From Chloroflexota bacterium (GTDB lineage Bacteria > Chloroflexota > Anaerolineae > Anaerolineales > Villigracilaceae): DNA of 21,380 bases. The translations under genes and the position numbers were made by a program. Below, in pieces: positions 923 through 20,140 of this stretch. The notes below the pieces were generated by a model that did not search any database, was not told the origin of the DNA, and saw nothing but the letters and a program-made list of their open reading frames with translations. Each line of letters opens with the position of its first letter. Within the stretch, counting starts at the first letter, position 1. The stretch spans positions 1 to 21,380 of the forward strand of contig JAJYOH010000032.1 in NCBI GenBank assembly GCA_021796315.1, written 5' to 3'.

Positions 923-1933
923 ATGGACTGGAAAAATCAAGTTGTACTTATCACTGGTGGCACAGGTTCATTTGGAAAAAAGTTCACCAAAATTGTGTTG
1001 GAAGAAAAAAATCCGAAGAAGATCATCATCTTCAGCCGCGATGAATTGAAACAACACGAAATGCGTGTGGCCGGATACGATGATCCGCGTTTGAGATATT
1101 TCATCGGCGATATCCGTGACCGCGAACGACTGCTTCGCGCCATGCACGGCGTGGACATTGTGGTCCACGCCGCGGCGTTGAAACAGGTCCCAGCCTGTGA
1201 ATATAACCCGATGGAAGCGGTCAAGACCAACATTATCGGCACATCCAACGTGCTCGAAGCCGCGCTGGATGCGGGCGTGAAAAAAGTGTTGGCGCTCAGC
1301 ACCGATAAAGCCGTCAGCCCGGCAAATCTTTACGGCGGAACAAAACTCGTCGCGGAAAAATTGGTCATTCAAAGCAACGCCTATGCTGCCGGTTCAGCCA
1401 CGCGTTATTCGTGCGTTCGTTATGGGAACGTGGTCGGTTCGCGCGGATCGGTCGTGCCGCTGTTTCTCAAGCAGCGTTCATCCGGCAAAGTCACCATCAC
1501 CGACGATCGCATGACGCGCTTCTGGCTTTCGCTGGAGCAGGGCGTGCATTTCGTTATCAATTGCATCGAGCAGATGGAAGGCGGCGAAGTTTTTGTTCCG
1601 AAGATTCCAAGCACAAAAGTTGTTGACCTTGCGCGCGCCATTGCGCCCAATGCCCAAATTGATATCATTGGCATTCGCCCCGGAGAAAAACTCCACGAAG
1701 ATTTACTGTCAGTAGACGAGGCCCGCCACACGGTCGAGTTGGAGCGCATGTATGTCATCCAACCGGCGGAGGCGATCTGGTTCGGTTATTCGTGGCAAAA
1801 TAAAGGCAAGCCTGTCGCTGAAGGATTTTCCTACACGAGCGATAGCAACACTGAATGGCTGGATGTGGAAGGCATCAAAAAATATATCGCCCCGTTCGAG
1901 CAGGCGTTTTCAGACGGCAAGTTGGAAGGGTAA
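923..1933 (+). CDS. pseB: UDP-N-acetylglucosamine 4,6-dehydratase, PseB type
   Basis: This 336-residue extended SDR protein probably removes water from UDP-GlcNAc, inverting C5, to give a UDP-4-keto-6-deoxy-N-acetylhexosamine. It is the first step to pseudaminic acid and related sugars. The Rossmann motif GGTGSFG is at residues 12-18. The family signature STDKAV starts at 126, giving T127, D128 and K129, and the catalytic Tyr-Lys pair is Y137 and K141 in NLYGGTKL. The length equals that of characterised PseB proteins (about 333 residues). The start has a good ribosome binding site, AGGAG at 913-917, five bases before ATG. It is followed 9 bases later by an RmlD-like reductase. A CapE/FnlA-like role (UDP-L-FucNAc path) is an alternative, because that branch uses the same fold and also pairs with a reductase. 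Confidence 0.88.
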   Translation: MDWKNQVVLITGGTGSFGKKFTKIVLEEKNPKKIIIFSRDELKQHEMRVAGYDDPRLRYFIGDIRDRERLLRAMHGVDIVVHAAALKQVPACEYNPMEAVKTNIIGTSNVLEAALDAGVKKVLALSTDKAVSPANLYGGTKLVAEKLVIQSNAYAAGSATRYSCVRYGNVVGSRGSVVPLFLKQRSSGKVTITDDRMTRFWLSLEQGVHFVINCIEQMEGGEVFVPKIPSTKVVDLARAIAPNAQIDIIGIRPGEKLHEDLLSVDEARHTVELERMYVIQPAEAIWFGYSWQNKGKPVAEGFSYTSDSNTEWLDVEGIKKYIAPFEQAFSDGKLEG

Positions 1934-1942
1934 ATTTTTTAG

Positions 1943-2869
1943 ATGCGGATTTTGATCACCGGCGCAAGTGGATTGCTCGGCCTGAACCTGGCTTTGGATG
2001 CAGCGGCCGCGCATGATGTGATCGGCGTGGACCGCAACAAACTTGCGTCGGCGCCGCTCGATTTAATTCGCGCCGATCTTCTCGACCCGCAAGCGGTCTC
2101 GCGCGTTTTGAATGAAGCAAAACCTGAAGCCGTGATTCACTGTGCGGCGCTGGCGAATCTCGAAGCCTGCGAAACTGATCCCGACCTGGCTTATCAAATG
2201 AACGCCGAGCTTCCCGCGCAAATTGCGGATGCATGCGCGCGTCGCGGCATCAACCTTGTGCACATCTCGACCGATGCGGTTTTTGACGGTACAAAAGATG
2301 GTATGTACACCGAAGCAGACACGCCTAATCCGGTGGGAGTTTACTCGCAGACCAAGTTCGCCGGTGAACGCGGAGTTTTGCAAATGAATCCGCAGGCAAT
2401 CGTGGCACGCGTTAATTTCTATGGCTGGTCGTTGGATGGAAAACGCAGTCTGGCGGAGTTCTTCGTCAATAACCTGGGCAATGGTAAAAACGTCAATGGT
2501 TTTACCGATGTGATTTTTTGTCCGATGCTCGTAAATCATCTCGGAAAAATTTTGCTGGAGATGATTGAAAAAAAATTACACGGACTGTATCACGTGGTTG
2601 GGCCGCAGGCCATGAGCAAGTATCAGTTTGGCGTTGAAGTTGCGCGCAAGTTTGGGTTAAGGGAAAGCCTCATTTCGCCTCAATCCGTTGACAAGTCCAG
2701 TTTGACCGCGCATCGTTCCCACAACTTGTGGCTGTCTGTCCACAGGTTGTCCACAGATCTGGGACACGAACTTCCCAACTTTTCCACAGGTTTGGAGGAG
2801 TTTTATGCACAGTATCAGCAGGGTTATCCACAGAAAATCCGTAGTTATCAACAGGATAACGCGCAATGA
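1943..2869 (+). CDS. RmlD-like NAD(P)H-dependent sugar-nucleotide reductase (SDR)
   Basis: This 308-residue extended SDR protein belongs to the dTDP-4-dehydrorhamnose reductase family (RmlD_sub_bind). The nucleotide-binding motif GASGLLG is at residues 7-13, STDAVFDG at 109-116, and the catalytic YSQTK at 134-138 (Y134, K138). Family members reduce a C4 ketone on a nucleotide sugar. Here the obvious substrate is the 4-keto product of the preceding PseB-like enzyme, since no rmlA, rmlB or rmlC is present. That substrate is inference. No C-terminal cupin is present, unlike CapF/FnlB. The last 25 or so residues extend past the usual end of the fold and are encoded by a cluster of DnaA-box-like 9-mers, giving a YxQ heptad pattern. 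The stop codon overlaps the next start (ATGA). Confidence 0.82.
   Translation: MRILITGASGLLGLNLALDAAAAHDVIGVDRNKLASAPLDLIRADLLDPQAVSRVLNEAKPEAVIHCAALANLEACETDPDLAYQMNAELPAQIADACARRGINLVHISTDAVFDGTKDGMYTEADTPNPVGVYSQTKFAGERGVLQMNPQAIVARVNFYGWSLDGKRSLAEFFVNNLGNGKNVNGFTDVIFCPMLVNHLGKILLEMIEKKLHGLYHVVGPQAMSKYQFGVEVARKFGLRESLISPQSVDKSSLTAHRSHNLWLSVHRLSTDLGHELPNFSTGLEEFYAQYQQGYPQKIRSYQQDNAQ
2736..2853 (+). promoter_or_regulatory. Cluster of six DnaA-box-like 9-mers
   Basis: Six sites lie on the same strand: CTGTCCACA at 2736, TTGTCCACA at 2747, TTTTCCACA at 2780, TTATGCACA at 2803, TTATCCACA at 2824 and TTATCAACA at 2845. The fifth is the perfect bacterial DnaA consensus, and the fourth also fits TTWTNCACA. 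Start-to-start distances are 11, 33, 23, 21 and 21 bases, mostly whole turns of B-DNA. They lie in the 3' end of the reductase gene and stop 13 bases before the start of the membrane transferase. Such clusters occur at replication origins, DnaA-titration sites and DnaA-regulated promoters. No dnaA gene or clear AT-rich unwinding region is visible beside it. DnaA binding is therefore a prediction from sequence match and spacing. Confidence 0.6.
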
Positions 2870-4497
2870 CAAATCCGACCGGCCTGGACTCGAGGCGGAT
2901 TCAGAATTGGATCGCGCTGGCGCTGATCACATTTTTTGTCGTCTTCGGGATGTTGAGCGTTCAGAAAGTGTCTACAACGTTTGACGAGGATCAACATTAC
3001 CGGTACGGCAAAAATATTTTGAACTTGAACTCAACGCGCTTTGATGACAGCAAGATGCCGGTCTCAGCCTGGAATGCGCTGCCCGCTAAAATTGCTTCGC
3101 GCCTGCCCGATGGGTGGCTTAAAAACTTCCTCAGTGAATTCTTTGTTGCCCGCTGGATGACCATTCTTTTTTCGGCGCTGGTCGCCTATCTCGTTTTTCA
3201 TTGGGCTCGTGTTATGTACGGCTTTTATGCCGGTCTGGCGGCTCTGTTTTTATATATTTTCGACCCCAACATTATTGCCCACTCCCAGTTGGTCACGACC
3301 GATATTTATGTGACCGGCACAATCCTTTTTGCTTGTTACTGGGCCTGGAAATTTGCCAACACTCGAAGCCTATATGATGGGATGTCGAGCGCTTTTATGC
3401 TGGGCTTTAGTCAGCTTGCCAAATATACATCCATCGTTTTGCTGCCGCTGCTCCTGTTGGCGCTGGTTCTGCATGACCTTCCTGCCCAGATTTCTGCCTA
3501 TAAGGAAAAAGGTTATGCTGCCATTGCCCGCTACCTGGGACAACTTATCTTGTATACGGCTGCTGGCGGCATTGCCATACTCCTGCTGATCAATGTCGGT
3601 TTTTTATTCAATCGCCCTTTGGTGGCCTTGCATAAATATGACTTTGAGTCCGGTTTTTTTACATCGATTCAAAATATAAAAATCTTCCAGAATTTTCATG
3701 TTCCCGTTCCCTATCCTTATTTGCAGGGGCTGGACAGGGTCATGTTTAAAGAACGAATCAATGCAGGGAATGGCGCCAACTACCTTCTCGGACACCTTAG
3801 CGCTAAACAGGGTTTTCCCGGATATTATTTCATTGCCTCAGCGTTGAAAGTTCCCATTGCCACCCAGGTCATTCTCATTGCTGCTTTTGTCGCCTATCTT
3901 GTCAACAAACAGCGCAGAAAATCATTGCTTCAAAACGAGATATTCCTGCTGGCGCCGGTTGCGTTTTTTACCATCTACTTTAATTTTTTCTACAACGCGC
4001 AGATCGGAATTCGATTCTACCTGGTGGTCTTCCCCCTGATTTATGTTTTTGCAGGAAGCTTATTTGCAGGATGGCCGGGGTTTTCCAGGAATCAAAAAAT
4101 TGCAGTTTTTGCCCTGGCTGTTTATTTGGTCGCCTCTGTGTTGTCATATTATCCTTTCTATCTCTCATACTTTAATGAAATTGTCTGGGACCGAAAATAT
4201 GCTTATAAATATCTGGTTGACTCGAATCTGGATTGGGGTCAGGGACAATACTATCTTCGGGATTACATGACCTTGCACCCCGATGCGATCTATGAGCCGA
4301 AGCAACCGGTGAGCGGACTTCTCATCGTTTCGCCCAACGATCTGGTTGGCTCAACAACCTGGGATAACATTGATCACTACAAATGGCTGCGTGATAACTT
4401 CCAGCCGGTTACAACTATCGCGTACGAATATGTGGTTTATGATGTGTCCCCTCAGGCTTTGCAAAAAATTTGCGCCGGGACCACTGACTGTCATTAG
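2866..4497 (+). CDS. GT-C fold membrane glycosyltransferase (PMT/ArnT-like)
   Basis: This 543-residue protein has about 11-12 hydrophobic segments; the first is near residues 13-33. It is followed by an extracytoplasmic loop with the acidic motif TFDEDQHYRYG (D40, E41, D42), where GT-C enzymes such as PMT, ArnT and PglL-like proteins keep a catalytic aspartate. A soluble C-terminal part of about 110 residues includes LDWGQGQYYLRDY. GT39/GT83-type enzymes move a sugar from a polyprenyl-phosphate carrier to an acceptor on the outer face of the membrane. Donor and acceptor here are unknown. The start overlaps the reductase stop by four bases, so the two are probably translated together. The 3' neighbour, the nonulosonate synthase, follows after 17 bases. 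Confidence 0.78.
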   Translation: MTNPTGLDSRRIQNWIALALITFFVVFGMLSVQKVSTTFDEDQHYRYGKNILNLNSTRFDDSKMPVSAWNALPAKIASRLPDGWLKNFLSEFFVARWMTILFSALVAYLVFHWARVMYGFYAGLAALFLYIFDPNIIAHSQLVTTDIYVTGTILFACYWAWKFANTRSLYDGMSSAFMLGFSQLAKYTSIVLLPLLLLALVLHDLPAQISAYKEKGYAAIARYLGQLILYTAAGGIAILLLINVGFLFNRPLVALHKYDFESGFFTSIQNIKIFQNFHVPVPYPYLQGLDRVMFKERINAGNGANYLLGHLSAKQGFPGYYFIASALKVPIATQVILIAAFVAYLVNKQRRKSLLQNEIFLLAPVAFFTIYFNFFYNAQIGIRFYLVVFPLIYVFAGSLFAGWPGFSRNQKIAVFALAVYLVASVLSYYPFYLSYFNEIVWDRKYAYKYLVDSNLDWGQGQYYLRDYMTLHPDAIYEPKQPVSGLLIVSPNDLVGSTTWDNIDHYKWLRDNFQPVTTIAYEYVVYDVSPQALQKICAGTTDCH

Positions 4498-4514
4498 GTA
4501 CAAGGAGATTCATG

Positions 4515-5585
4515 ATGGACATAAAAATTGGTAACCGCATAATTGGTTCGAATCACCCCACTTATTTCATCGCCGATATTGCCGCCAATCACGATGGCGA
4601 CCTTGATCGTGCCAGGATGCTCATCCGCCTCGCGCGGGACGCCGGAGCGGACGCCGCTAAATTCCAGCATTTCCAGGCGCCGAAGATTGTTTCCGATTAC
4701 GGCTTCACGCACATGGATTCAAAGGTCAGCCATCAATCCGCGTGGAAAAAGTCAGTGACACAAGTTTATGCAGATGCATCCGTTTCGTGGGATTGGACTC
4801 CGATCTTGAAGGAAGAGTGCGATAAGGTCGGGATCGATTTCTTCACATCGCCGTACGATTATGATTCCATCGAACATGTCAACCCATATGTTCCTGCGTT
4901 CAAGGCTGGTTCCGGTGAAATTGACTGGATCGAATCTCTCGAACATATGGCATCCAAAGGCAAGCCGATGATCATTGCCACTGGCGCATCGGATATTGCC
5001 GATGTGCAGCGCGCAGTACATGCGATTTTGAAAATCAACAAGCAGTTATGTCTGATGCAGTGCAACACCAATTACACGGCCAGCCCTGAAAATTATGATC
5101 ACATTCATTTGAATGTACTGAAAACTTATGCCACGATGTTCCCCGATGTGGTGTTGGGACTTTCCGATCATACGCATGGCAACGCGACCGTGCTCGGTGC
5201 GGTGACGCTTGGCGCGCGCATGATCGAGCGTCACTTTACCGACAGCAATGACCGCGAAGGTCCCGACCATAAGTTTGCATTGAATCCCGCCGACTGGGCG
5301 CACATGGTCGAAGAGACGCGTTTGCTGGAGTGTGCGCTTGGTTCCGCCGATAAATTCATCACTGACAACGAACAGCAGACGAAAGTCGTTCAGCGGCGTT
5401 GCCTGCGCGCGGCGCGCGATATCAAAGCCGGAGAAGTTTTCACGCGCGGGATGATCGATGTTCTGCGTCCGGCCACGCCCGGCGCGATCAAGCCGTATGA
5501 AATTCCAAACGTGATTGGTACAAAAGCGCTGGCGGATATGCCGATGGGCAAGGAATTACGCTGGACGGATCTCGGTTCGGTTTAA
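4515..5585 (+). CDS. neuB: NeuB/PseI-type N-acylneuraminate (nonulosonate) synthase
   Basis: This protein of about 356 residues condenses phosphoenolpyruvate with a six-carbon N-acetylaminosugar to form a nine-carbon nonulosonic acid in the cytoplasm. The NeuB TIM barrel comes first, with FIADIAANHDGDLDRA near residue 19, AKFQHF near 49, FKAGSGEIDW and NTNYTASPENYDH in the middle, and RHFTDSNDREGPDHKFAL near 240. A C-terminal SAF (antifreeze-like) domain follows from about 295 with RRCLRAARDIKAGEVF. Tandem ATG codons sit at 4512 and 4515. AAGGAG at 4502-4507 lies 7 bases from the second and only 4 from the first, so I prefer 4515. Sequence alone cannot separate Neu5Ac, legionaminate, pseudaminate or other synthases. 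The neighbouring PseB-like gene argues for a 6-deoxy substrate rather than ManNAc. Confidence 0.88.
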   Translation: MDIKIGNRIIGSNHPTYFIADIAANHDGDLDRARMLIRLARDAGADAAKFQHFQAPKIVSDYGFTHMDSKVSHQSAWKKSVTQVYADASVSWDWTPILKEECDKVGIDFFTSPYDYDSIEHVNPYVPAFKAGSGEIDWIESLEHMASKGKPMIIATGASDIADVQRAVHAILKINKQLCLMQCNTNYTASPENYDHIHLNVLKTYATMFPDVVLGLSDHTHGNATVLGAVTLGARMIERHFTDSNDREGPDHKFALNPADWAHMVEETRLLECALGSADKFITDNEQQTKVVQRRCLRAARDIKAGEVFTRGMIDVLRPATPGAIKPYEIPNVIGTKALADMPMGKELRWTDLGSV

Positions 5586-10315: not shown

Positions 10316-11320
10316 GTGGATTGGTTTTTGGTTGTATCTTTGTTTTTAATGTTTTTGCCAATGGTCCTCGCTTTTGTTATTATTAAAAGCGGGAAAAATT
10401 TGGTTTATCGATTAATAGGCAAGTTTATTTTGAAGCTTGTAGTAGTTAACATTGTTTTTGTCGCGCTATTATTTATTCCAAGTCAATATATTGATACCCT
10501 TGTAAGCGATAATAAGTTCTTGTATGTGCTGTTAGGGCTTCAAATCATTTTTTCAATTATCCTTGTAATACGATCTAAAGCTACATTTTTTCGTTCTTGG
10601 GAACCCTGGCTTATTTTGTTGCCAGACGTATTATTTTGGTCAGCTATCTCTGGTGCGGTTAGTTGTGTGCCTGGAGAAGGTCTCGATTTTACTTGCTTTG
10701 CCGGGATGTTGATGTTATTTGCATTTTGGCCAATTATCTTAGTTGGATTATGGTTATTCCTTATGCTCGCCCTATGGGTTTATTCAAGAAAACAGAATAG
10801 AAAAGATTTGGAAATAAACAACCTCTTTAAGAGGGGTCAGAGCTTGGAAAATATTGCTGTTATCATTCTGATTCTTTTCACGCTAATTGTGGGTTACTAT
10901 TTCCCATTGGTTTTTCTGTTGGTAACTGGCATTTATATTTGTGTTGTTTATTCTGATAATAGATTGAACCAAATAGTTGGCATATTTGCTATCAAGTACG
11001 CCATAGCTTTTGTTTTCTATGTCTACTTACAAGCAAATCCTTTATGGGGGAATGATGTTCTCAGTTCTTATATTTCTATGCTATTGGGTGTTGCAATGTC
11101 TATAGCTGCGATCCTCTTTTTTGGAGATTTGAAATGGCCCCCACTCTTGAGATTGATATTGATCGGAGATGTTACTTATTGGCTTGCGGCTTCAATTGCT
11201 TATGAATTAACTGAGCTGCAAATTTCAAACCTTTTTCTATTCTTCTATCCAATCTTGGGAGTTGTATTTATAACCTGTAATTCAAGAAGGATGAAGGGAA
11301 ATTACTTAGTTGACAATTAA
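10316..11320 (+). CDS. Unknown polytopic membrane protein, AT-rich
   Basis: This 334-residue protein has about 9-10 hydrophobic segments and short polar loops. I do not recognise the family. A cysteine-containing loop (SCVPGEGLDFTC) and a polar cytoplasmic stretch (SRKQNRKDLEINNLFKRG) near the middle stand out. The start is GTG at 10316: the frame has a stop at 10301-10303 and no ATG between, and no good Shine-Dalgarno is visible. The DNA is clearly richer in A and T than all neighbours, with frequent ATT, TTA, ATA and AGA codons. This points to recent acquisition or different selection. Similar proteins in glycan clusters include polymerases and acyltransferases, but no motif here supports either. 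Confidence 0.65.
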   Translation: MDWFLVVSLFLMFLPMVLAFVIIKSGKNLVYRLIGKFILKLVVVNIVFVALLFIPSQYIDTLVSDNKFLYVLLGLQIIFSIILVIRSKATFFRSWEPWLILLPDVLFWSAISGAVSCVPGEGLDFTCFAGMLMLFAFWPIILVGLWLFLMLALWVYSRKQNRKDLEINNLFKRGQSLENIAVIILILFTLIVGYYFPLVFLLVTGIYICVVYSDNRLNQIVGIFAIKYAIAFVFYVYLQANPLWGNDVLSSYISMLLGVAMSIAAILFFGDLKWPPLLRLILIGDVTYWLAASIAYELTELQISNLFLFFYPILGVVFITCNSRRMKGNYLVDN

Positions 11321-13659: not shown

Positions 13660-14109
13660 GTGGCTGGACCCAAATCCATGTTCCTCTTTTATTTTTCCAT
13701 TACGCTTGCCATCTGCTCCAGCGCGCTCTATCACTTTAGCGCCAAAAGCGTGCCATCCAATATCAACTTTGCGATTTCACTGGTTGTGACGTATGCAGTC
13801 GCGCTGGGGATCACGCTGATAACTGCGCTTCTTTTCCCCGCCCCAAACGGACTGGCCTTCGAGTTGAAGCAACTCAACTGGGCCAGTTTCCTGCTGGCCG
13901 TTGCCATCGTCGGGATCGAGTTCGGCTTCCTGATGGTCTATCGCTCCGGTTGGAATCTGGGAATCGCCGCAGTGCTGGTGAATGTGGTGGCTTCGTTGAT
14001 TTTGTTGCCGGTGGCGATTTTCTTTTTTAAAGATAAAATCTCGTGGGTCAACATTGCCGGGATCTTTGTCTGCCTGGCTGGTTTGATCATGTTGAACTGG
14101 AAAAGGTAA
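13660..14109 (+). CDS. Half-size EamA/DMT-type membrane transporter
   Basis: This protein of about 149 residues has four to five hydrophobic segments, beginning FLFYFSITLAICSSALYHFSAKS. It ends in a characteristic helix pair, ILLPVAIFFFKDKISWVNIAGIFVC then LAGLIMLNWK. That ending matches one EamA domain of the drug/metabolite transporter superfamily. Full EamA proteins carry two such domains (about 300 residues). Single-domain forms act as dimers, like EmrE and the ArnE/ArnF flippase pair. A role in moving a lipid-linked sugar is possible here but unproven. I chose GTG at 13660, which has GAAAGGA about 9 bases upstream. TTG 13639 and ATG 13678 are alternatives. Confidence 0.65.
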   Translation: MAGPKSMFLFYFSITLAICSSALYHFSAKSVPSNINFAISLVVTYAVALGITLITALLFPAPNGLAFELKQLNWASFLLAVAIVGIEFGFLMVYRSGWNLGIAAVLVNVVASLILLPVAIFFFKDKISWVNIAGIFVCLAGLIMLNWKR

Positions 14110-14126
14110 TTGGAGAACTTATAAAG

Positions 14127-15155
14127 ATGTTTTCTCGTTTCAGAACTGCCGCTCGCATTCTCCTCAAGGGCGACCCTCAAAAGAAAACCCGCAACCCTGT
14201 TCCTGCTATCACGCCCGAAGAAGTGGCGGAGATCAAGCAATTCTTTCCGCGCGAGAAATTCTTCATCTTCGGTCATGCCCGTTCAGGGACGACTCTGTTG
14301 ATGCGCCTCGCGCGCCTGCACCCCGAAGTTCATTGCAATTATCAAGCTCACTTCTTTACTCGCAAACCGTTGCTGAAATCGCTGGTCGATTCACCTGAAA
14401 TCGAAGAATGGTTGACGCGCAAGTCCAACCGCTGGAATCAAGGCCGCGATCTCTCGCCGCTTGTGCTGCGTGCGTCGGCGGATTTCATCATGGAACGCGA
14501 CGCGGCCCGCGAGGGAAAAATGATCGTGGGAGATAAAAGCCCTTCGTCCACCATCCACGGTCAGGCTGTGCGCGACGCGTATACAATTTATCCCGATGCA
14601 AAACTGGTTTACATTGTCCGCGATGGACGCGATGTGCTGATCTCGGAACGTTTCCGCAATTTCGTGGAAGAATCCAAATTTCTGAGCGCGGAGGATAAAC
14701 GCATTATTGAAGATTTGCGTAAAGATCAGACGCCCTTCACGAATGGCGCTCGCTCGATCTTCACTGAGACTTTTATCCGGCGCGTGGCAAAAGGCTGGGT
14801 CACTGATCTAAAAGAAACTGAAGATGAAGCGCAAAGACTTTATAGCCAAAATTATTTTGGTCTGCGCTATGAAGATTTGCTCGCGAAACCTTTCGATGAA
14901 ATGAGCAGGCTCTGGAAATTTCTTGATGTAAAAAAAATCAGCAAGTCGCTGGAGAAGGAAATCAAGGCCGAGATGTCATCCAATCCCGATGAAGAATGGC
15001 AGTCCAAACGCAACGGGGACATTTCTTCATTCCTGCCGAAGGGTCAAGCCGGAAACTGGCAGAGACTTTTCACTGAGCGCGATAAAGTGGTCTTCAAGGA
15101 AGTCGCGGGCGAGATGTTGGTCAAATGGAAGTACGAGAAAGGTTTGAATTGGTAA
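14127..15155 (+). CDS. PAPS-dependent sulfotransferase
   Basis: This 342-residue enzyme transfers sulfate from PAPS to a hydroxyl or amine on an acceptor. The 5'-phosphosulfate-binding loop is GHARSGTTLL at residues 49-58. The 3'-phosphate-binding motif is VYIVRDGRDVLISERF at 161-176, with the usual Arg165 and Ser173. Between them, MIVGDKSPS is also typical. A C-terminal block (LPKGQAGNWQRLFTE) matches the GxxGxWKxxFT element of the family. There is no signal peptide, so it acts in the cytoplasm, probably on a carbohydrate or lipid-linked precursor. The frame is open upstream to 14043, but that would overlap the transporter gene. ATG 14127 lies just downstream of GGAG and gives a normal N-terminus. 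The Sat-CysC gene downstream would supply its PAPS. Confidence 0.88.
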   Translation: MFSRFRTAARILLKGDPQKKTRNPVPAITPEEVAEIKQFFPREKFFIFGHARSGTTLLMRLARLHPEVHCNYQAHFFTRKPLLKSLVDSPEIEEWLTRKSNRWNQGRDLSPLVLRASADFIMERDAAREGKMIVGDKSPSSTIHGQAVRDAYTIYPDAKLVYIVRDGRDVLISERFRNFVEESKFLSAEDKRIIEDLRKDQTPFTNGARSIFTETFIRRVAKGWVTDLKETEDEAQRLYSQNYFGLRYEDLLAKPFDEMSRLWKFLDVKKISKSLEKEIKAEMSSNPDEEWQSKRNGDISSFLPKGQAGNWQRLFTERDKVVFKEVAGEMLVKWKYEKGLNW

Positions 15156-18409: not shown

Positions 18410-20140
18410 ATGTCGAAAGCTAAATTGATTACCCCCTATGGCGGAAAGCTGGTGAGCCTGGCGCTGACCGGTGCGGAACGTGACGAGCAACTTGCACGCG
18501 CTTCGAAACTCCCCTCGATCAAGATCACAATGCGGAATTTGTGCGACCTGGAGTTGATCGCCACTGGCGGATTTTCCCCGTTAGATCGCTTCATGGGCAA
18601 GGCGGACTATGAGCGGGTTCTGCACGAGATGCGACTCAGCGACGGGACGCTTTTTCCGCTTCCCATCACGCTGACGGCGGATCCGAAAGATTTGCCGACT
18701 GTTGGCGAAGATATTGTTCTGCGCAACTCGAACAATGATGTGATCGCGGTTATGACCCTCGATGAAGTCTATCACTGGGATGCCGGGACCGAAGCGGCGC
18801 TGGCTTACGGTTCGACAGATGCCAAGCACCCGATGGTTTCAGAGATGGCGCGCTGGGGAAAAGTTTGCATCTCCGGCCCGATGAAAGTTGTCAACCTGCC
18901 GAAGTATCATGACTTCAAGGAATTACGCCGCACGCCTGCCGAAGTCCGCGACCTGCTCGAGAAGATGGGCAACGATAACGTGGTTGCTTTCCAGACGCGC
19001 AATCCATTGCATCGCATCCATGAAGAATTGACCAAGCGCGCCGCCGAAGCGGTGGGTGGCAGCCTGTTGATTCATCCCGTGGTTGGCATGACCAAGCCCG
19101 GCGACGTGGATCACTTCACGCGCGTCCGCATTTATAAAGCGTTGGTTGAAAAATATTACGACAAAAATAAAACTGTTTTATCTTTGCTTCCGCTTGCAAT
19201 GCGCATGGCGGGACCGAAGGAAGTTCTTTTACATGCCATTATCCGACGCAATCATGGCGTGAATCATTTGATCGTCGGGCGCGATCACGCGGGGCCGGGA
19301 AAAGATTCTACGGGCAAACCGTTCTACGGTCCGTATGACGCGCAGGATAACATGCACAAGTACGAGCACGAAATTGGCGTCAAAGCCATCCCGTTCGAGG
19401 AACTTGTTTATCTTCCCGATGAAGATCGCTATGTTGAAAACAAGGATATTCCCGCCGGCGCGAAAGTTTTGAATATTTCCGGCACGCAGGTGCGCGATGA
19501 TTATTTGGCGAAGGGCAAACTTTTGCCGCCGTGGTTTACGCGCCCTGAGACCGCCGAGATTCTGCGACAGATGTATCCGCCGCGTCACACGCAGGGTGTC
19601 TGCATTTGGTTCACCGGCTTGAGCGGATCGGGCAAGACCGCCACCACTGAAGTGTTGACCGCGCTGATGCTCGAACGCGGACGCGAGATCGCCATTCTCG
19701 ACGGCGATGTGGTTCGCACGCATCTTTCAAAAGGTTTGGGCTTCAGCAAGGAAGACCGCGATACAAATATTTTGCGTATCGGTTTTGTGGCTGGTGAGAT
19801 CGTCCATGCCGGCGGCGTTGTGATTTGCGCGGCCATCAGTCCGTATCGCGCGGCGCGCGAGGAAGCTCGCAAGATGGTCGGCGCGGACAACTTCGTGATG
19901 GTTTACATGGACACGCCCGTTGAAGTCTGTGAACAGCGCGATGTGAAAGGTTTGTACGCGAAGGCTCGTCAGGCCATGGCTGACGGACATCCGATGGGCT
20001 TCACCGGCGTGGACGATCCGTATGAGCCGCCGATCGATCCTGAGATCACTTTGCAGGGCAGCGGCATCACGCCCGAAGAAAATGCGCGCAAGATCATCGC
20101 GTATCTTGAGCAGCAGGGTTTCGTTCTCCCTCAACAATAA
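18410..20140 (+). CDS. Bifunctional sulfate adenylyltransferase / APS kinase
   Basis: This 576-residue fusion makes PAPS from sulfate and ATP. The N-terminal sulfate adenylyltransferase part (about 1-390) has QTRNPLHRIHE starting at residue 195, which holds the sulfate- and ATP-binding Gln, Arg and His residues. GRDHAGPG is at 290-297, and ISGTQVRD comes near 364. The APS kinase part (about 395-570) has the P-loop GLSGSGKT at 403-410, DGDVVRTHL, FSKEDRDTNILRIGFVA and ISPYRAAREEAR. All key motifs of both halves are intact. The order (Sat then CysC) is that of the Aquifex-type fusion. PAPS output and a nearby sulfotransferase argue for sulfation of the glycan; assimilatory use is the alternative. 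It has its own predicted promoter. Confidence 0.93.
   Translation: MSKAKLITPYGGKLVSLALTGAERDEQLARASKLPSIKITMRNLCDLELIATGGFSPLDRFMGKADYERVLHEMRLSDGTLFPLPITLTADPKDLPTVGEDIVLRNSNNDVIAVMTLDEVYHWDAGTEAALAYGSTDAKHPMVSEMARWGKVCISGPMKVVNLPKYHDFKELRRTPAEVRDLLEKMGNDNVVAFQTRNPLHRIHEELTKRAAEAVGGSLLIHPVVGMTKPGDVDHFTRVRIYKALVEKYYDKNKTVLSLLPLAMRMAGPKEVLLHAIIRRNHGVNHLIVGRDHAGPGKDSTGKPFYGPYDAQDNMHKYEHEIGVKAIPFEELVYLPDEDRYVENKDIPAGAKVLNISGTQVRDDYLAKGKLLPPWFTRPETAEILRQMYPPRHTQGVCIWFTGLSGSGKTATTEVLTALMLERGREIAILDGDVVRTHLSKGLGFSKEDRDTNILRIGFVAGEIVHAGGVVICAAISPYRAAREEARKMVGADNFVMVYMDTPVEVCEQRDVKGLYAKARQAMADGHPMGFTGVDDPYEPPIDPEITLQGSGITPEENARKIIAYLEQQGFVLPQQ

What the first reader, a model, noticed from the sequence alone, without database searches (positions are those of the whole stretch)
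2736..2853. Helically phased cluster of six DnaA-box-like sites inside a sugar-reductase gene
Six TTNTNCACA-like 9-mers lie on one strand within 118 bases; one is the perfect consensus TTATCCACA. Their spacing is 11, 33, 23, 21 and 21 bases, mostly multiples of a helical turn. A single perfect 9-mer is expected about once per 262 kb per strand in random DNA, so the cluster is unlikely to be chance. Possible roles are a datA-like DnaA titration site, a secondary or mobile-element origin, or DnaA control of the downstream glycan operon. Placement in coding DNA far from any dnaA gene is unusual.
Basis: partly seen in the sequence, partly recalled or inferred. Interest (0 to 1): 0.72.

Follow-up and report, generated by a model that had tools for sequence, protein, structure and literature searches.

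The report
DnaA-box array inside a sugar-reductase gene
The end of a sugar-making gene in a group of Chloroflexota bacteria doubles as a conserved row of likely binding sites for DnaA, the protein that starts chromosome copying, perhaps to hold DnaA back after each start; this ties an enzyme's protein sequence to replication control.

Summary
The cluster is real and far beyond chance. The window's nearest relatives are Anaerolineales (Chloroflexota). In 68 orthologous rmlD-like genes (67 loci plus the window) the last 56 codons hold 3.24 DnaA boxes on average, against 0.27 when synonymous codons are shuffled; 11 more distant orthologues hold none. Synonymous sites are more conserved in the tail than in the gene body, and some amino-acid changes keep the box. 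In 67 loci the boxes lie 416 to 2 on one strand, helically phased; in 42 of 63 two or more boxes follow the stop codon. About 1.06 Mb of flanking DNA holds no such cluster.

It is probably not the origin. A separate three-box site occurs in 42 of 54 genomes, with a DnaA-trio element in 10 of 24 fetched loci, and is the likely oriC. In the 9 genomes with both on one contig they are 56-417 kb apart. When genes come between rmlD and neuB, the boxes stay with rmlD.

Best reading: an origin-proximal DnaA-sequestering array that works like E. coli datA or B. subtilis clusters, written inside coding DNA. DnaA binding and effect on initiation are inferred, not shown.

The parts
1943..2869 (+). RmlD-family (SDR) sugar-nucleotide reductase gene whose 3' end carries the array
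   Evidence: Pfam RmlD_sub_bind E 2.4e-65 over residues 1-292; the 120 listed homologues are 69-99% identical (6617 found)
2715..2723 (+). Weak, phased DnaA-like site GTTCCCACA (putative box 0)
   Evidence: Sequence; its codons are unusually conserved, S259 TCC 46 of 53, H260 CAC 39 of 42; that it is a box is inference
2736..2744 (+). Box 1, CTGTCCACA (weak)
   Evidence: one mismatch to TTNTNCACA; its conservation was not counted (the ranges cut it short)
2747..2755 (+). Box 2, TTGTCCACA (codes LST)
   Evidence: full box in 37 of 67 rows, one base off in 26; S270 TCC 62 of 62, T271 ACA 51 of 60
2780..2788 (+). Box 3, TTTTCCACA (codes FST)
   Evidence: full box in 24 of 67 rows, one base off in 27, more in 16; S281 TCC 64 of 66, T282 ACA 40 of 60
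2803..2811 (+). Box 4, TTATGCACA (codes YAQ)
   Evidence: full box in 38 of 67 rows, one base off in 23; relatives use TTATACACA, TTTTACACA or TTATGCACA
2824..2832 (+). Box 5, TTATCCACA, perfect consensus (codes GYPQ)
   Evidence: full box in 59 of 67 rows; P296 CCA 65 of 66 against a background of 0.15
2845..2853 (+). Box 6, TTATCAACA (codes SYQQ)
   Evidence: full box in 61 of 66 rows; Y302 TAT 61 of 61, Q303 CAA 52 of 52; relatives also TTATGCACA, TTATTCACA, TTTTACACA
923..1933 (+). Upstream neighbour: Polysacc_synt_2 dehydratase
   Evidence: Pfam E 1.6e-101; a frame with the same N-terminal motif lies upstream in at least 15 of the 20 loci listed
2866..4497 (+). Downstream overlapping gene: PMT_2 glycosyltransferase between rmlD and neuB
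   Evidence: Pfam E 2.2e-10; the ATGA overlap leaves no intergenic DNA
4512..5585 (+). NeuB-family synthase, conserved downstream partner of the array gene
   Evidence: Pfam NeuB E 4.2e-67; a neuB motif found downstream in 60 of 68 rows

Best explanation
The 3' end of this rmlD-like gene is a dual-use sequence. Besides coding for the enzyme's C-terminus it is a one-strand, helically phased array of DnaA boxes (about six here; up to about ten in relatives, where it often runs on past the stop codon). Shown: selection at the DNA level on these 9-mers across a clade, strongest on boxes 5 and 6; regular spacing; identity of the 9-mers with the boxes of the clade's likely oriC; a place separate from that oriC and, in the 9 genomes where it could be measured, 56-417 kb from it. 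Inferred: DnaA binds the array as a head-to-tail row on one face of the helix. Because the array lies near the origin it is copied soon after initiation, its dose doubles, and it takes up free (ATP-)DnaA, so preventing a second start, as datA and the B. subtilis / Streptomyces clusters are reported to do. Six of six genomes searched show no IHF-alpha match, so plain sequestration is more likely than IHF-driven ATP hydrolysis.
For: Codon-shuffle test: 3.24 boxes against 0.27 in 68 rows, 65 of 68 at p<=0.05, 55 of 68 at p<=0.01; 11 outgroup rows 0. Tail synonymous-identity excess 0.285 against 0.076 in the body, best 40-codon body window 0.108, 67 rows. Amino-acid changes that keep boxes 4 and 6. 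In 67 loci 416 boxes on one strand and 2 on the other; common spacings 21, 23, 33, 43-44, 53-56; R = 0.85 at period 11, n = 343, not independent because the loci are related. At least 3 same-strand boxes in 62 of 67 array regions and no such cluster in 1.06 Mb of flank. The same 9-mers and 21-bp step mark the separate oriC-type site. Distances of 56-417 kb in 9 genomes, two of them single-contig chromosomes, G189 228 kb and G131 237 kb. DnaA signature GGRDH(T/S)TV in 7 of 8 dnaA loci (that this is the box-reading motif is recalled). datA: essential boxes in one direction, map positions 3.92 and 4.39 Mb for oriC and datA, dose effect (PMC5742627, passages).
Against: No binding data. No IHF-alpha match in 6 of 6 genomes, so the known datA hydrolysis mechanism is unlikely. 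L046 keeps 1 box, and the pair search of its genome gives one widely spaced pair only, so the array is dispensable at least there. Box 3 is a full box in only 24 of 67 rows, box 2 in 37, box 4 in 38. GC skew is weak and pointed to the oriC-type site in only one of four genomes sampled. [quoted passage not shown] subtilis (PMC5295017), which weakens that parallel.
Confidence: 0.6

Rival explanations
1. DnaA bound at the array controls transcription of the glycan operon, as a repressor or a roadblock between rmlD and neuB, so that envelope glycan synthesis follows the cell cycle.
For: A neuB motif lies within 700 nt downstream in 37 of 68 rows and further down in 23 more. Many boxes lie after the rmlD stop and before neuB. 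DnaA is a known transcription factor (PMC4447404, start of abstract only).
Against: When other genes come between, the boxes stay in rmlD; 22 of 23 displaced neuB genes have no box in the 400 nt upstream (L043 has one), and 6 of the 37 adjacent ones have none there either. In the window the array is entirely inside coding DNA. Outgroup genomes G029, G030 and G031 have same-strand arrays in other places.
Confidence: 0.2
2. A second or former replication origin.
For: Box number and 21-bp phasing resemble those of the oriC-type site; arrays of relatives run into the DNA after the stop codon.
Against: No TAGTAGTAG/CTACTACTA within -400 to +1500 of the stop in any of 79 rows, as far as the contigs reach. 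A separate three-box site exists in 42 of 54 genomes, with an adjacent trio element in 10 of the 24 loci tested by strict pattern. In contig C2 of G001 the skew turns at that site and not at the array, which lies 359 kb away. In the window the array abuts overlapping coding DNA.
Confidence: 0.05
3. A reactivation site (DARS-like) that helps ADP-DnaA exchange its nucleotide, rather than holding DnaA.
For: A non-oriC DnaA-box cluster is also what DARS1 and DARS2 contain (PMC5742627, passages).
Against: Position near oriC fits datA better; the long same-strand arrays do not look like the three-box DARS core described in the passage (no sequence test done). IHF, part of DARS2, has no IHF-alpha match in 6 of 6 genomes.
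Confidence: 0.1
4. Chance, or a by-product of a conserved protein tail with biased codons.
For: The tail residues LST, FST, YPQ and YQQ are conserved and can be coded by box-like DNA.
Against: Shuffling synonymous codons removes the boxes. Boxes continue past the stop codon with the same spacing in 42 of 63 loci. Residues change while boxes stay.
Confidence: 0.02

Closest known systems
datA of Escherichia coli
   Same: Non-oriC DnaA-box cluster, essential boxes in one direction, near oriC (about 0.47 Mb by the map positions in PMC5742627, passages)
   Different: datA is described as non-coding and needs an IHF site; here the array is largely or wholly inside a gene, has more boxes, and 6 of 6 genomes show no IHF-alpha match. 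No sequence homology claimed.
DnaA-box clusters (DBCs) of Bacillus subtilis and the Streptomyces cluster
   Same: Non-oriC clusters said to be analogous to datA and to repress untimely initiation (PMC5742627, passages); removal of six in B. subtilis gave early initiation (PMC5295017, passages)
   Different: In B. [quoted passage not shown] here one main array per genome. The primary papers were not read (PMC3245932 not held).
oriC with the basal unwinding system (DnaA-boxes plus DnaA-trios)
   Same: Same 9-mers and a 21-bp step as in the clade's own oriC-type site
   Different: No DnaA-trios found, and boxes on one strand almost only, at the array
DARS1 / DARS2 of Escherichia coli
   Same: Non-oriC DnaA-box clusters that regulate DnaA
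   Different: Box number and layout; no IHF-alpha match in 6 of 6 genomes

Membership tests
Non-oriC DnaA-box cluster (general kind) | Several consensus DnaA boxes clustered beyond chance | tested here: met
Non-oriC DnaA-box cluster (general kind) | Separate from oriC | tested here: met
   Oriented three-box oriC-type site found elsewhere in 42 of 54 genomes; that this site is oriC is itself inferred
Non-oriC DnaA-box cluster (general kind) | DnaA binds it | not testable with these tools
   Needs gel shift or ChIP-seq
datA | Essential boxes in one direction | tested here: met
   416 against 2 boxes by strand in 67 loci; which boxes are essential is unknown
datA | Located near oriC so that it is copied early | tested here: inconclusive
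   56-417 kb in 9 genomes with both on one contig, two of them single-contig; 29 further genomes have the two on different contigs
datA | IHF as partner | tested here: not met
   No match to the IHF-alpha model TIGR00987 in 6 of 6 genomes, while the model rings in 9 of 14 control genomes; IHF-beta and binding sites not tested
datA | Represses untimely initiation | not testable with these tools
   Needs genetics
oriC | Unwinding element (DnaA-trios) beside boxes | tested here: not met
   No TAGTAGTAG/CTACTACTA near the array in any of 79 rows, as far as the contigs reach; degenerate trios not tested
oriC | Coincides with the GC-skew minimum | tested here: inconclusive
   Away from the array in G001 contig C2; unclear in G002 and G003; in G189 the 200-kb sampling cannot separate the two sites
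DARS | Promotes ADP release from DnaA | not testable with these tools
   Biochemical property

The most novel reading that the evidence does not exclude
A replication-timing element written in overlapping code with an enzyme: in this Anaerolineales clade the C-terminal residues of a sugar-nucleotide reductase are kept largely because their codons spell a DnaA-sequestering array, so replication control has shaped a metabolic protein's sequence across the whole clade.
Probability: 0.5. Interest if true: 0.75.

Novelty: new variant of a known kind. Interest (0 to 1): 0.66.

Why it matters
Non-oriC DnaA-box clusters have been studied in a few model bacteria; the passages read describe datA and DARS as non-coding. 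A one-strand, phased array kept inside an enzyme gene across a deep Chloroflexota clade, with its own separate oriC-type site, suggests that initiator sequestration near the origin is wider than those models and can live in coding DNA. It gives a clear sequence test (silent recoding) for initiator titration in a phylum for which searches brought up no paper on such an element, and shows that conserved protein tails may be read as DNA elements.

Tried and rejected
Plasmid collection: no match to the array DNA. GC skew: informative only in G001 contig C2; G002, G003 and G189 did not separate the two sites. Chance and codon bias were rejected by codon shuffling. neuB promoter control was tested by asking whether boxes follow neuB; they do not. 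Hda search: DnaA itself and weaker hits, none over the cut-off. The strict 30-bp motif in 301 genomes of the order found 39, a lower bound, since genomes with arrays by the looser search (for example G015, G019, G026) do not match it. Two of the 80 loci (L059, L068) were dropped because their match is cut off before the tail; L071, whose reading frame stops early at codon 272, was counted, left out, and not mended. Box 1 was not properly counted: the ranges cut it short. Three papers listed and one hold the search words; I did not open them.

Full report
Observation. Four match TTNTNCACA strictly, two (2736, 2845) differ by one base, and a weaker phased site, GTTCCCACA, lies at 2715-2723. They fill the last ~45 codons of an RmlD-family reductase gene (1943-2869; Pfam E 2.4e-65) in a glycan gene cluster. 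Among the 120 homologues listed of 6617, those whose name gives an organism are Chloroflexi, several of them Anaerolineales. The next gene overlaps the stop codon, so there is no intergenic DNA at the array in the window. In the window as a whole, matches to TTWTNCACA with up to one mismatch are as frequent as expected (41 against 40); it is the cluster that is unusual.

DNA-level conservation. The protein tail is strongly conserved (35 sequences aligned, the window plus 34 of the 120 listed), so the question is whether the DNA is conserved beyond it. One scan of GTDB species genomes returned 80 loci, the best of 154. Two (L059, L068) end before the tail; the other 78 were read. Sixty-seven of them, at 60-80% protein identity, form the ingroup; 11 (L069, L070, L072-L080; 52-56%) form the outgroup. 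With the protein and codon usage fixed, 1,000 synonymous shuffles per gene give 0.27 boxes on average in the last 56 codons; the ingroup plus window (68 rows) has 3.24. 65 of 68 reach p<=0.05 and 55 of 68 p<=0.01; L046, L064 and L071 do not. All 11 outgroup genes have none. Synonymous identity above background is 0.285 in codons 266-306 against 0.076 in the body, where the best 40-codon window is 0.108 (67 rows, L071 left out). Rare codons are near-fixed at box positions: P296 CCA 65 of 66 (background 0.15), S270 TCC 62 of 62 (0.15); also Y302 TAT 61 of 61 and Q303 CAA 52 of 52. Box 6 is TTATCAACA, TTATGCACA, TTATTCACA, TTTTACACA or TTTTGCACA in different genomes: the residues change, the box stays. 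Box 4 moves by two bases between TTATACACA and TTTTACACA. The boxes are not equally kept. Counted over 67 rows (66 for box 6), full boxes number 37 (box 2), 24 (box 3), 38 (box 4), 59 (box 5) and 61 (box 6); a further 26, 27, 23, 7 and 5 are one base off. Box 1 was not properly counted.

The array is larger than the coding tail. Of 63 loci with at least 200 nt of DNA after the stop, 42 (L071 among them, whose frame stops early) have two or more further boxes and 16 have none. In the 67 loci 416 boxes point one way and 2 the other, and 343 neighbouring spacings under 90 bp are close to multiples of 10.5-11 bp (R = 0.80 at 10.5, 0.85 at 11; related loci, so not independent). The same 21-bp step after the stop codon shows that it does not come from the protein. 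At least three same-strand boxes occur in 62 of 67 array regions (66 loci plus the window), and no such cluster occurs in 1.06 Mb of the same loci outside them. A tree of the protein body (78 rows, tail and L071 left out) puts the 11 no-array genes and the 67 others on two sides of one branch (support 98/99; midpoint root). One ingroup gene, L046, keeps only one box.

A separate origin. A box-pair search of 33 whole genomes of relatives gives a few hits per genome, typically the rmlD array and one other site, with some isolated pairs; the reversed control pattern gives 0 or 1. The other site has a fixed triple, TTNTCCACA-20-TTWTCCACA-21-TTATCCACA, found in 42 of 54 genomes, four of the six outgroup genomes (G028-G033) included. 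In inverted orientation, roughly 240-320 bp away, it often carries TAGTAGGGGCTGTGGATANTGTGGATA-like sequence, which fits the DnaA-box/DnaA-trio basal unwinding element described in PMC8287927 (passages). A strict pattern finds it in 10 of 24 fetched loci; the 24 include several outgroup loci that hold arrays and not origins. No TAGTAGTAG run occurs near the rmlD array in any of 79 rows, as far as the contigs reach. In contig C2 of G001 the sampled cumulative GC skew turns at about 0.735 Mb, next to the triple at 0.746 Mb and well away from the array at 1.105 Mb; the other contig was not sampled. In G002 and G003 the skew is unclear, and in G189 sampling at 200 kb cannot tell the two sites apart. 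I therefore take the triple site as oriC with good but not complete confidence.

Position. In nine genomes both sites lie on one contig: G001 359, G002 198, G003 73, G008 62, G025 56, G131 237, G189 228, G234 107, G250 417 kb apart. G189 (3.97 Mb) and G131 (4.13 Mb) are single contigs of chromosome size; the distance is 5.7% of each. The boxes point away from oriC in seven of nine (not G025, G234). In the other 29 of 38 array-bearing genomes with the triple the two lie on different contigs, so the sample is biased towards short distances.

What else it could be. A neuB motif lies downstream in 60 of 68 rows, within 700 nt in 37 and at 0.7-3.9 kb in 23; in 22 of those 23 there is no box in the 400 nt upstream of neuB. 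In 8 rows neuB was not found, five of them on contigs that end within 500 nt. So the array belongs to rmlD, not to the neuB start. Operon-level control is not excluded. Outgroup genomes G029, G030 and G031 have same-strand arrays, apparently outside genes by ORF listing only, 1.8, 20.6 and 23.3 kb from their own oriC-type site and not at rmlD. This suggests that an array near the origin, rather than the glycan operon, is the common element; G028, G032 and G033 did not show one clearly. DnaA keeps GGRDH(T/S)TV (recalled as the box-reading signature) in 7 of 8 loci; the eighth was not resolved. No IHF-alpha match was found in 6 of 6 genomes and no Hda above its cut-off.

Mechanism and comparison. 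E. coli datA has a DnaA-box cluster with all essential boxes in one direction, lies near oriC (map 4.39 and 3.92 Mb), acts by dose and with IHF promotes hydrolysis of DnaA-bound ATP; clusters in B. subtilis and Streptomyces are called analogous (PMC5742627, passages). Removal of six clusters in B. subtilis gave early initiation, but the same review says elsewhere that clusters with significant roles have not been identified there (PMC5295017, passages). The Anaerolineales array shares direction, regular spacing and (where measured) place with datA; it differs in being largely inside a gene and in the missing IHF. It works most likely as a titration array and is not filed as datA. Literature searches for such an element in Chloroflexi or in coding DNA brought up none by their listings; the four papers listed were not opened, and most subscription papers are not in that library.

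Shown: real cluster, DNA-level selection, phasing, one-strand order, separation from the oriC-type site. Inferred: DnaA binding, sequestration, effect on initiation.

Noticed in passing
L089-L092, L157-L167: Likely oriC of Anaerolineales: fixed three-box module plus inverted box pair next to TAGTAG DnaA-trios, and not next to dnaA (in G001 dnaA is 413 kb away on the same contig).
   Followed up: partly
L167:4360-4668, L169:2527-2578, L170:2730-3356: Outgroup genomes G029, G030 and G031 have same-strand DnaA-box arrays (9, 3 and 10 boxes) 1.8-23.3 kb from their oriC-type site, not at rmlD.
   Followed up: partly
G269:C21:26086 and 86232: One genome has two oriC-type triples 60 kb apart on one contig, in opposite orientation; duplication, mixed bin or two origins.
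   Followed up: no
Genomes G001-G008: Single TTATCCACA sites outnumber the reversed control pattern genome-wide in all 8 genomes, from 36 against 2 in G001 to 58 against 30 in G006.
   Followed up: no
L071: The rmlD frame stops at codon 272 while the array DNA follows (frameshift or assembly error); not mended.
   Followed up: no
window 14043-15155 and 18410-20140: A sulfotransferase-family gene and a fused ATP-sulfurylase/APS-kinase gene in the same cluster suggest a sulfated surface glycan.
   Followed up: no
window 10316-11320: A stretch of low G+C (0.36-0.39 against about 0.50 around it) with a hydrophobic ORF, perhaps recently acquired.
   Followed up: no
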